The position numbers and the translations under genes are program-made. The notes under the pieces were generated by a model. The model searched no databases, was not told the origin of the DNA, and saw only the letters and a program-made list of their open reading frames with translations. Positions 283 through 6,027 of a stretch of 25,148 bases of DNA are shown piece by piece; within the stretch, counting starts at the first letter, position 1, and each line of letters opens with the position of its first letter. Origin of the DNA: a virus; IMG/VR virus record IMGVR_UViG_3300037217_000006, positions 1 through 25,148 of that record, one strand, 5' to 3'.

Positions 283-354
283 TCAGGATGCGAGGTGCTG
301 CCCCCCGGGCCTCCCGGTTCCAAGCCGGGTGCTCTACTGCTGAGCTACATCCTG
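283..354 (-). tRNA. tRNA-Pro (anticodon UGG), unusual elbow
   Basis: This is a 72-nt cloverleaf on the minus strand. The acceptor CAGGATG/CATCCTG pairs at 7 of 7 positions and the discriminator is A283. The D-stem GCTC/GAGC is perfect, as is the anticodon stem CCCGG/CCGGG. The anticodon loop CTTGGAA has U33 and anticodon UGG. The T-stem CGGGG/CCTCG has one G-U pair. Two features are odd: the T-loop is GGCAGCA instead of a TTCRANY-type loop, and the 7-nt D-loop AGCAGTA lacks the G18-G19 pair that normally docks into it. The CCA end is not encoded. Confidence 0.72.
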
Positions 355-3787: not shown

Positions 3788-4018
3788 CTAGGGCAGCGAG
3801 TAGCCGCAGTTCGGGCAGACGATGGGCCCGCTCAGGTCCGTCACCGTGACATTGAGTGCATCGGCCAAGGCCTTCGTCACGACGGGCGACGGTTGCCGCC
3901 GACCCGACAGGATCTCGCTTAGGTAACTCGGCGACAACCCCGCCAACTTCGCAAGGTCCGAGGCACGCAGGCTCCGTTCCCCGCAAAGATGGCGAAGGGT
4001 TGTCGTGCTGATCGGCAT
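3788..4018 (-). CDS. XRE-family helix-turn-helix protein with a C-terminal Cys pair, 76 aa
   Basis: ATG 4018 lies two bases after the stop of the Ro60 gene. A GTG 15 bases further upstream is less likely because it lies inside that gene. Residues about 5-55 form an XRE/Cro-type HTH (LRASDLAKLAGLSPSYLSEI, then SGRRQPSPVVTKALADALN). The C-terminus ends CPNCGYSLP, half of a zinc-ribbon knuckle that may pair with another monomer. As the last gene of the Ro60 module it may regulate that module's promoter or the phage lysis decision. This is inferred from position only. Confidence 0.82.
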   Translation of the reverse strand: MPISTTTLRHLCGERSLRASDLAKLAGLSPSYLSEILSGRRQPSPVVTKALADALNVTVTDLSGPIVCPNCGYSLP

Positions 4019-4020
4019 GG

Positions 4021-5577
4021 CTAGAACGGCCACCCTTGCTCGCGACCCATCTCCAACAGAGGCATGAGCCGGAAGGTGGCATCGGTGAACCCGCCGTAGG
4101 AGTGGACGCCCGCCTGACCGTGCGGGGCCATCGCCACCCGGTACCCGGCGAGGTTGAAGACGTGCAACTGCGGGACGTTGGCGAGCGAACCCGCCTTGTT
4201 GTCGTGTCCCTGCTCATCGGTGAAGATCACGACCCGCTTGTGTCCGTCGTAGTGGGCCTGTACCGCCTGCTGGATGAACGTGGCGTGGCCCAACTGACCG
4301 GACCGCTGAAGATTGGTGATGAACTCGGTGACCTTTAGAACCGATGAACCCGGGGCGATGTCGAGCCGGGCCGACCCCTGACCGAAGCACACCAGGTCGG
4401 CCTGGTAGGAACCGCCCTTCTTCCACAACGCGGCGCCGAACAGTGCGCCGATCTCGTAGCGGGCCATCTGAGATTTGGCCGACACAGCAGAGGTCATTGA
4501 CCCGGACAGGTCCACCAGGATCAGCGTCCGACCGTCGAACGCTGGAATGTTCTTGACGGAGTGATCCAGCGCCCGTTCAAGAGCACGACCCCACGTCAGG
4601 TTTCCAGCGTTGGCCTTGTACGCCGAATAGAAGCGATACGGGAACTGGCGGGACTTGGCAACCTCATCGGGGTCTGACAGGCGGCCGATGATCCGGTCCT
4701 TCAGGTCTTCGGGGATGCCCTTCGCCTCGAAATTGCGGAGGTTGCGGAGCAGCGCCATGTACCCCATCTGCGGAACGACACTCGCCCACGCTTCAGCATC
4801 CATGCCACCGGGCAACCATCCGGCGAGGCGTTCCCACGACCATCCGGCCGCGGCCACGCGACCATCGCGGAGCGCGGAGCGCCGCTGATCCTCGGGCAGT
4901 CCCATGAGCGCCAAGTCGAGCGGGATCGTCCGTAGGCCCTCACCGATGCGGGGGTCGGCCCGCTTGTGGCGCTTGTCGAGCAGGTAGCGGAACAGTTCGG
5001 ACTGCCAACCCGCAGATGGGACCGGATGGACCAGGTCGATGACATCGCCGAAACGGATCGCCTTGTCCTGTCCGTCGTAGCGCAGCGAGGCCCGCTCCGT
5101 GTAGAGCCGCTGGCAGGCGTCCGCGATTCCCCGCTTCAGCGCGGCGGGCAACTTGCGGCCGTGCGTGGCGTGCCAGTAGCCGAGGATCTCGGCGGGCTCG
5201 TCGGCACGCTGCAACGCCGAGGATACGACGGAGCGACCATTCGGGCCACCGGCATAAACGTACTCGGCTGCCATGACGGTCGACGCGGACCGCATCTGCA
5301 TCGTGTCACGCAGGAACGGCACGAACCGACGCAACCAGTCGGAGTCGGTGCGAACCACGTCGGCGATCAGGTCCCGGTACCGCTTGTCACGGTCGGCCGA
5401 CGCCTCGTAGAACGTCGCCTCGCCCACCATGTTGGTCACAGCAAGCAGGAATAGCTCGGACTGAGCGTCCCGCAAGCGGCCGTCGCCCCCCTCGTAAGTT
5501 GGGGCAACCTGCTCGGCGACTCGGATCGGTCCCTGTGCGGGGACTCGGATCGGTGCGGTACCGCTGAACTTTGCCAT
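4021..5577 (-). CDS. rsr: Ro60/TROVE-domain RNA-binding protein (Rsr), 518 aa
   Basis: ATG 5577 follows AGGAG by 8 nt. An upstream in-frame extension to 5715 would run through the Y RNA region and is rejected. Residues about 35-345 form the helical-repeat TROVE ring (for example ELFLLAVTNMVGEATFYE, then RSASTVMAAEY and GYMALLRNLRNFEAKGI). Residues about 350-515 are a von Willebrand A-like domain with an intact MIDAS motif DLSGSM (D356, S358, S360) and FTDEQG (D454). The length fits Ro60 family members. Ro60 proteins form a ring that holds misfolded or Y RNAs. In bacteria, Y RNA can tether Rsr to the exonuclease PNPase. Three Y RNA-like elements lie directly upstream, which strongly supports a ribonucleoprotein function. 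Confidence 0.93.
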   Translation of the reverse strand: MAKFSGTAPIRVPAQGPIRVAEQVAPTYEGGDGRLRDAQSELFLLAVTNMVGEATFYEASADRDKRYRDLIADVVRTDSDWLRRFVPFLRDTMQMRSASTVMAAEYVYAGGPNGRSVVSSALQRADEPAEILGYWHATHGRKLPAALKRGIADACQRLYTERASLRYDGQDKAIRFGDVIDLVHPVPSAGWQSELFRYLLDKRHKRADPRIGEGLRTIPLDLALMGLPEDQRRSALRDGRVAAAGWSWERLAGWLPGGMDAEAWASVVPQMGYMALLRNLRNFEAKGIPEDLKDRIIGRLSDPDEVAKSRQFPYRFYSAYKANAGNLTWGRALERALDHSVKNIPAFDGRTLILVDLSGSMTSAVSAKSQMARYEIGALFGAALWKKGGSYQADLVCFGQGSARLDIAPGSSVLKVTEFITNLQRSGQLGHATFIQQAVQAHYDGHKRVVIFTDEQGHDNKAGSLANVPQLHVFNLAGYRVAMAPHGQAGVHSYGGFTDATFRLMPLLEMGREQGWPF

Positions 5578-5611
5578 GTTGCTATCTCCTGTCTGTATTG
5601 AGATGGGGTGA

Positions 5612-5733
5612 GGATTTCCAAGCGAGAACCGATTCAATCCCCATGAGATTGCATTAGCCGGATTTGAACCGGCTCGTCGCCCGAAGGCGACCACTGAAGT
5701 ATGGGAACTGGTCACTTCGCTTGGTACAAATCC
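5612..5733 (-). ncRNA. Y RNA-like element 3 (next to rsr)
   Basis: The ends pair in a long stem: GGATTT (5733-5728) with AAATCC, and CCAAGCGA (5724-5717) with TCGCTTGG (5625-5618). A 3-nt GTA bulge separates the two helices. Just inside lie the shared elements CGAAGTG (5719-5713) and GGTTCTCG (5630-5623). The enclosed module has a perfect six-bp hairpin with a cUUCGg tetraloop (5691-5676), a perfect T-arm GCCGG-TTCAAAT-CCGGC (5673-5657) and a stem CAATC/GATTG (5651-5635). No D-arm is seen, so this is a degenerate tRNA-like module. The bulged terminal helix is the expected Ro60-binding site. Confidence 0.75.
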
Positions 5734-5872
5734 ACCCGAGAACCGGGTCGATCCCGCTGCTTACTACCGGCGCTCTACCGAACTGAGCTATCCCCTGACC
5801 AGGTCGGGGGAGTTGGATTTGAACCAACGACCAACGGTTCCAAAGAAGTACGCGAGACCTGCACTTCGGGTG
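5733..5872 (-). ncRNA. yrlA: YrlA-type Y RNA with permuted tRNA-like domain (element 2)
   Basis: The terminal stem CACCCGA (5872-5866) pairs with TCGGGTG (5739-5733) and carries the shared CGAAGTG and GGTTCTCG elements. GGTC (5859-5856) pairs with GACC (5749-5746). The inner module is tRNA in permuted order: variable loop (5833-5829), perfect T-arm GTTGG-TTCAAAT-CCAAC (5828-5812), acceptor strand TCCCCCG (5811-5805), a closing loop of 7 nt, acceptor strand CAGGGGA (6 of 7 paired), TA, and a perfect D-arm GCTC-AGTTCGGTA-GAGC (5788-5772). The anticodon-like stem CGGT/ACCG continues into TACT/AGTA with an 8-nt kink. An acceptor stem without a free CCA end and a kinked anticodon stem are published YrlA features. 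Confidence 0.88.
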
Positions 5873-5881
5873 TTCAGAACT

Positions 5882-5965
5882 CTCGGCGAGAACCAAGCGG
5901 GGCCGGGCACTGGCCGAAGCCAATCCGCAGGAAGGAAGTAACCGACTGCCCTACACTTCGCCGAG
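5882..5965 (-). ncRNA. Y RNA-like element 1 (promoter-proximal)
   Basis: CTCGGCGA (5965-5958) pairs perfectly with TCGCCGAG (5889-5882). The shared elements CGAAGTG (5960-5954) and GGTTCTCG (5894-5887) sit at the inner end of this stem exactly as in the other two copies, but the stem sequence differs and compensates on both sides. The enclosed part has GGGC/GCCC pairing potential and a hairpin ATTGGC-TTCG-GCCAGT (5924-5909) with a cUUCGg tetraloop. It has no T-arm, so it resembles a simple Y RNA without the tRNA mimic. Confidence 0.68.
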
Positions 5966-5997
5966 CAAACTTGTCAACGTGCAACTACCTGACGCAG

Positions 5998-6027
5998 ACA
6001 GTACAGCGAACTCCAGCGAACTGTCAA
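5998..6027 (-). promoter_or_regulatory. Sigma70-like promoter for the Y RNA/rsr unit
   Basis: TTGACA (6027-6022) is followed by an 18-bp spacer and TACTGT (6003-5998), which predicts transcription from about 5991, just before element 1. The -35 box contains the TGA stop of the MuF-like gene. The spacer region carries the 9-nt direct repeat CAGCGAACT (plus strand 6004-6012 and 6014-6022) phased by 10 bp, which could be an operator for a regulator such as the XRE protein at 3788-4018. Confidence 0.6.

What the first reader, a model, noticed from the sequence alone, without database searches (positions are those of the whole stretch)
4021..6027. Phage Ro60 (Rsr) gene with three tandem Y RNA-like RNAs
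The roughly 445-bp gap upstream of rsr is filled by three RNAs on the same strand. Each has CGAAGUG at the inner end of its 5' stem strand (5960-5954, 5868-5862, 5719-5713) and GGUUCUCG at the 3' strand (5894-5887, 5744-5737, 5630-5623). The flanking stems differ but remain paired: CUCGGCGA/UCGCCGAG, CACCCGA/UCGGGUG and CCAAGCGA/UCGCUUGG. That is covariation within one locus. Ro60 proteins are known to bind the terminal helix of Y RNAs, and Y RNAs near Ro60 genes are known in bacteria and phages. A cluster of three distinct types in one phage is the notable part.
Basis: partly seen in the sequence, partly recalled or inferred. Interest (0 to 1): 0.87.

Follow-up and report, generated by a model that had tools for sequence, protein, structure and literature searches.

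The report
Phage Ro60 with three Y RNAs
This virus of actinobacteria carries a gene for the RNA-binding ring protein Ro60 together with three small partner "Y RNAs" of three different designs; such sets turn out to be normal next to Ro60 genes in actinobacteria and their phages, but the standard RNA catalogue does not flag them.

Summary
The 446-nt gap upstream of a phage Ro60 gene (rsr, 4021-5577, minus strand) holds three RNAs of 84, 140 and 107 nt. I add a third shared motif (UACUUC) and, in units 2 and 3, a strong second helix (P2; weaker in unit 1). P1, an internal loop and P2 make up the Ro-binding stem of Y RNAs. A covariance model built only from relatives finds units 1 and 2 (E about 1e-6). 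Unit 2 carries a YrlA-type permuted tRNA mimic. Unit 3 carries a hairpin plus a T-arm only. Unit 1 has no tRNA-like part. Unit 3 is not found by the model but has perfect 8-bp P1 and 10-bp P2 helices. The protein is a Ro60: its closest solved relative by sequence is Ro60 of Thermus phage phiLo. Rfam's YrlA model reports none of them at its threshold. Verdict: a genuine Ro60/Y RNA locus, a variant of a known kind. Expression, Rsr binding and effector partners remain untested.

The parts
4021..5577 (-). rsr: Ro60/TROVE protein, 518 aa, with HEAT-repeat ring and vWA domain; DxSxS metal site at D356-S360; invariant H184 aligned to Ro60 H187
   Evidence: Pfam TROVE E 4e-13; PHROG_850 E 7e-45; AlphaFold pLDDT 89.7 and fold matches only to Ro60/Rsr at E<=1e-3; profile match to 1yvp, 2nvo, 9kop
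5882..5965 (-). Y RNA unit 1 (84 nt): P1 5965-5958/5889-5882, UACUUC 5940-5935; small UUCG hairpin, no tRNA-like part
   Evidence: model R2, built without the window: 39.9 bits, E 5.8e-7; R1 30.5 bits
5733..5872 (-). Y RNA unit 2 (140 nt): P1 5872-5866/5739-5733, UACUUC 5850-5845, YrlA-type tRNA mimic
   Evidence: R2 37.1 bits, E 2.4e-6; Rfam YrlA 32 bits, sub-threshold
5768..5836 (-). permuted tRNA-like module of unit 2: T-arm 5828-5812, closed acceptor-like hairpin 5811-5791, D-arm 5788-5772
   Evidence: Rfam YrlA model positions 23-85, E 4.6e-5 over 601 bases; minimum-energy fold of the module shows the same three hairpins
5618..5724 (-). Y RNA unit 3 (107 nt): P1 5724-5717/5625-5618, P2 5710-5701/5644-5635, UACUUC 5701-5696, hairpin 5691-5676 then T-arm 5674-5656, no D-arm
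   Evidence: minimum-energy fold with exactly these helices, z -4.6, 0 of 200 shuffles as stable; duplex energies; not found by R1/R2
6000..6027 (-). possible promoter of the array: TTGACA (6027-6022), 16 nt, TGTACT (6005-6000)
   Evidence: read from the sequence; below the threshold of the promoter scan; inference only
3788..4033 (-). small Cro/C1-type HTH protein overlapping the end of rsr, probably co-transcribed
   Evidence: Pfam HTH_31 E 3e-13; overlap of reading frames

Best explanation
The locus encodes a phage Ro60 ribonucleoprotein with interchangeable RNA arms. The three RNAs are Y RNAs. Each has the same Ro-binding foot: terminal helix P1, an internal loop with conserved bases, and helix P2. 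Each carries a different effector head: a small hairpin, a full permuted tRNA mimic, or a T-arm with a hairpin. They are probably transcribed with rsr and trimmed to separate RNAs. Rsr binds the foot on its outer surface, which protects the RNA and gates the central hole. Each head is proposed to tether a different protein to the ring, such as PNPase (as in the RYPER machine of Deinococcus) or proteins that recognise tRNA elbows or T-arms. The ring would thereby be aimed at structured host or phage RNAs during infection. Shown here: Ro60 fold, Y RNA architecture, covariation in relatives, three head classes, genetic linkage. Inferred: transcription, processing, Rsr binding, partner tethering (the tethering of different partners by different heads I hold at about 0.4).
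For: Ro60 identity. Unit 2 matches YrlA with T-arm, acceptor-like hairpin and D-arm in YrlA's permuted order. Relatives: UACUUC in the 900 nt upstream of rsr occurs 52, 197 and 199 times on the sense strand against 2, 11 and 6 antisense, in 15 phage, 78 viral and 80 chromosomal loci. P2 was not used to choose the units and covaries: 82% of cells paired, covariation score 0.416 against 0.137 shuffled and at most 0.168 slid. Models trained without the window find units 1 and 2 and nothing else in 25 kb. In 668 kb of viral rsr loci all 195 model hits lie on the rsr strand. In a 10.7-Mb Streptomyces chromosome R1's only hit lies at rsr. The internal loop keeps UGC on the 5' side and ACUUG on the 3' side, as in the Rfam YrlA consensus. 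[quoted passage not shown] smegmatis (PMC4726728); the D. radiodurans Y RNA tethers PNPase to Rsr (PMC8394870, PMC4726728).
Against: No expression or binding data were available. Unit 3 is not recognised by either model, and its foot departs from the consensus (no GCAG, no 3' CUUG). Unit 1's P2 is weak, and its free energy is no better than shuffles. The Rfam YrlA match is far below its gathering score (32 against 69 bits). The partner-tethering step rests on analogy with one Deinococcus complex.
Confidence: 0.82

Rival explanations
1. The region is a structured 5' leader that regulates rsr in cis, for example by Rsr binding its own leader, rather than a set of RNAs acting in trans.
For: The array lies directly upstream of and on the same strand as rsr. 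In L017 the 3' strand of the last unit runs into the ribosome-binding region of rsr.
Against: Units also lie downstream of rsr in Arthrobacter phage Atuin and 1-2 kb upstream in L018, L066, L072 and L091. Effector heads include full tRNA mimics, which a leader does not need. In the window the last unit ends 40 nt before the ATG.
Confidence: 0.07
2. The heads are tRNA decoys against host anti-phage tRNA nucleases or tRNA-targeting toxins; Rsr merely stabilises them.
For: Full and partial tRNA mimicry; many related phage rsr loci sit inside tRNA arrays. A competitive-inhibitor role for the YrlA tRNA-like domain was suggested for Salmonella (PMC7790460).
Against: No anticodon arm in any unit; unit 1 has no tRNA-like part; the same arrays occur at chromosomal rsr genes of actinobacteria, where phage counter-defence is not expected.
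Confidence: 0.08
3. The RNAs are decaying tRNA genes.
For: Canonical T-loop sequence in units 2 and 3; related phages carry tRNA clusters here.
Against: The order T-arm, acceptor, D-arm is permuted relative to tRNA and matches YrlA. ARAGORN finds no tRNA. The closing helices covary across 125 sequences.
Confidence: 0.02

Closest known systems
YrlA RNAs (Rfam RF02553; Chen et al. 2014) with Rsr, in Salmonella, Mycobacterium and mycobacteriophages
   Same: Linked to rsr; P1, internal loop, P2 foot; unit 2 has the same permuted tRNA mimic.
   Different: Score far below Rfam's threshold. Units 1 and 3 lack the full mimic. The actinobacterial group has a conserved UACUUC just above P2, not seen in the Rfam YrlA consensus positions printed.
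Deinococcus radiodurans Rsr/Y RNA/PNPase complex (RYPER)
   Same: Ro60 ring plus Y RNA; the profile of the window protein and relatives aligns to Rsr 2NVO over most of its length.
   Different: No PNPase partner was tested; several RNAs instead of the tether described in the papers read.
Ro60 of Thermus phage phiLo (PDB 9l5y, 9kop)
   Same: Closest solved relative by sequence (E 1.9e-33) and also phage-encoded.
   Different: About 24% identical by structure alignment; its Y RNAs were not examined here.
Listeria phage CKA15 putative Rsr with three abundant small RNAs (PMC12282133)
   Same: A phage rsr-like gene near three highly transcribed non-coding RNAs, suggested to be Y RNAs.
   Different: No sequence or structure comparison was made here; different host group.

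Membership tests
Ro60/Rsr (TROVE) proteins | TROVE domain above the curated cut-off, with C-terminal vWA domain | tested here: met
   TROVE 49.8 bits against cut-off 23; VWA_2 25.2 against 27 (slightly below its cut-off)
Ro60/Rsr (TROVE) proteins | Ring fold of Ro60 | tested here: met
   all 13 PDB fold matches with E<=1e-3 are Ro60/Rsr, TM-score up to 0.79
Bacterial Y RNA | encoded next to rsr | tested here: met
   446-nt gap directly upstream, same strand
Bacterial Y RNA | terminal helix, internal loop, second helix (Ro-binding foot) | tested here: met
   units 1 and 2 match R2; unit 3 folds this way at z -4.6 but is missed by the model
Bacterial Y RNA | bound by Rsr in the cell | not testable with these tools
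   needs pull-down or CLIP
YrlA (RF02553) | score at or above the Rfam gathering threshold (69 bits) | tested here: not met
   unit 2 scores 32 bits; units 1 and 3 do not match. 0 of 34 other actinobacterial or actinophage rsr loci scanned passes
YrlA (RF02553) | permuted tRNA-like module with T-arm, closed acceptor and D-arm | tested here: met
   unit 2 only; unit 3 has only a T-arm and unit 1 none

The most novel reading that the evidence does not exclude
Actinobacteria and their phages use a previously uncatalogued Y RNA family, with an invariant Ro-binding foot and interchangeable effector heads (none, T-arm only, full tRNA mimic). One Ro60 ring can thus be fitted with several different partner proteins at once, and phages carry their own kit to redirect host RNA decay.
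Probability: 0.3. Interest if true: 0.75.

Novelty: new variant of a known kind. Interest (0 to 1): 0.5.

Why it matters
What phages gain from Ro60 and why cells keep several Y RNAs are open questions. A small phage locus with one protein and three distinct heads is a compact place to test which head recruits which partner. Independently, Rfam's YrlA threshold reports no Y RNA at any of 34 actinobacterial or actinophage rsr loci scanned, and several annotated phage tRNAs overlap Y RNA units. A better model would add hundreds of Y RNAs and correct those entries.

Tried and rejected
Rfam at gathering threshold: nothing in the array. ARAGORN: no tRNA. Folding energy alone: not discriminating for units 1 and 2. 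Reading UACUUC as pairing with GAAGUG: possible in the window (GAAGU/ACUUC) but not kept in relatives, whose consensus is GGUGCG; P2 fits better. The consensus promoter scan found nothing. R1 with filters off lost unit 2, probably because of its long insert, and did not recover unit 3. Nucleotide search found almost no relatives. The key papers (Chen et al. 2014; Sim and Wolin 2018) could not be read: Chen 2014 is not held and Sim and Wolin 2018 was seen only as a citation. I cannot exclude that arrays were described there. The test that own P1 partners beat swapped ones gives only a modest gap when the search is free (mean 22.0 against 17.5), because of GC-rich sequence; the anchored tests are the convincing ones.

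Full report
WHAT IS THERE. The window is a whole IMG/VR record of 25,148 bases with phage terminase, portal and head genes. On the minus strand, rsr (4021-5577) follows a head-morphogenesis gene that ends at 6024. The 446-nt gap holds three RNA units at 5965-5882, 5872-5733 and 5724-5618. The closing stems pair with their own partner and not with the others: -13.8, -12.7, -12.0 kcal/mol against -1.3 to -5.9 when swapped.

THE PROTEIN. It is a Ro60: TROVE domain, PHROG RNA-binding protein, and a confident model (pLDDT 89.7) whose only strong fold matches are Ro60/Rsr structures. The nearest by sequence is Ro60 of Thermus phage phiLo. A profile of 44 relatives aligns its invariant H184 to H187 of Xenopus Ro60. 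From my own knowledge that residue contacts Y RNA; I did not test it.

THE RNAs IN COMPARISON. Rfam at its threshold sees nothing in the array, but at relaxed threshold YrlA matches unit 2 at 32 bits (E 4.6e-5 over 601 bases), in the order T-arm, closed acceptor, D-arm. I then collected 15 phage or viral, 78 further viral and 80 chromosomal rsr loci. Upstream of rsr they carry repeated units with UACUUC on the sense strand: 52, 197 and 199 against 2, 11 and 6 antisense, and 1, 11 and 4 in the first 1,500 nt of the rsr coding region. The consensus 5' side is CCCGG-UGCG(C/A)A-GGC..CGG-UUACUUC, and the 3' side ends CUUGAUC-UCGGG. The short class (about 72 nt) shows the plan: P1, internal loop, P2, loop. 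The Rfam YrlA consensus printed has the same plan, with AUGC opposite AaAcUuG between two helices.

COVARIATION AND MODELS. On 34 short units, P2, which was not used to choose them, is paired in 82% of cells with covariation 0.416 against 0.137 shuffled. P1 was part of the selection, so its 100% pairing is biased. The model from these (R1) finds window units 1 and 2 and nothing else in 25 kb. It gives 195 hits in 93 viral loci, all on the rsr strand, and 102 in 44 chromosomal loci, also all on the rsr strand. In a 10.7-Mb Streptomyces chromosome R1's single hit lies at rsr (that tool scores only the best 150 candidates of a loose first look). A second model from 125 hits (R2) raises the window units to 39.9 and 37.1 bits. 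It shows three consecutive units at rsr in each of two Streptomyces genomes, plus one hit elsewhere in one of them. Unit 3 is missed by both; its support is the exact motifs, perfect P1 and P2, and z -4.6.

THREE HEADS. Classified by T-arm and D-arm, 292 units (related loci plus the window's three) fall into 114 with both, 73 with a T-arm only, 94 with neither and 11 with a D-arm only. The detector is crude, and some "T-arm only" units are long and may be full mimics with a divergent D-arm. Hairpin-then-T-arm heads like unit 3 recur in L023, L035, L064, L103, L127, L146 and L162. Having all three classes in one array is a minority state by this detector (7 of 78 viral and 5 of 74 chromosomal loci), but having three or more UACUUC motifs upstream is common: 36 of 78 viral, 37 of 80 chromosomal.

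MECHANISM AND LIMITS. The published model is that Rsr binds the lower stem of Y RNA and that, in Deinococcus, the other end tethers PNPase (PMC4726728; PMC8394870). Applied here, one ring would take three different heads. Expression, binding and partners are untested. Phage Rsr and Y RNAs as such are known (Chen et al. 2014, as cited in PMC12282133), so this is a variant of a known kind. I could not read Chen et al. 2014 or Sim and Wolin 2018, so priority for arrays is open.

Noticed in passing
L009 2126-2197; L013 2274-2347; L014 2269-2343; L012 2245-2335: Genes annotated as tRNA-Arg, tRNA-Ser, tRNA-Arg and tRNA-Pro in phages VanLee, LuckySocke, GiJojo and Frankenweenie overlap Y RNA units. 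Rfam tRNA scores are near or below the threshold of 29 (26.9, 29.5, 24.1 and none listed). They are probably Y RNAs mis-called as tRNAs; VanLee's only reported tRNA is one of them.
   Followed up: partly
window 283-354, minus strand: A tRNA-like sequence (Rfam 51.9 bits, anticodon loop reading UGG, so Pro) that ARAGORN does not call; its T-arm lacks the usual UUC loop.
   Followed up: no
L017 2925-3003: In the closest relative the last Y RNA unit ends about 10 nt before the rsr ATG, so its closing helix covers the ribosome-binding region; possible feedback control of rsr.
   Followed up: no
L006 4579-4742 and L013 4467-4699: Sub-threshold manA RNA matches (49.7 and 47.8 bits, threshold 55.2) between tRNA genes downstream of rsr in Streptomyces phages.
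   Followed up: no
L008 4248-4830: Arthrobacter phage Atuin has four Y RNA units downstream of rsr as well as at least one upstream, so the array is not tied to the 5' leader.
   Followed up: partly
Streptomyces genome of L113, position 1872999-1873140: One model R2 hit 0.6 Mb away from rsr (43.6 bits); may mark a second rsr or a solitary Y RNA.
   Followed up: no
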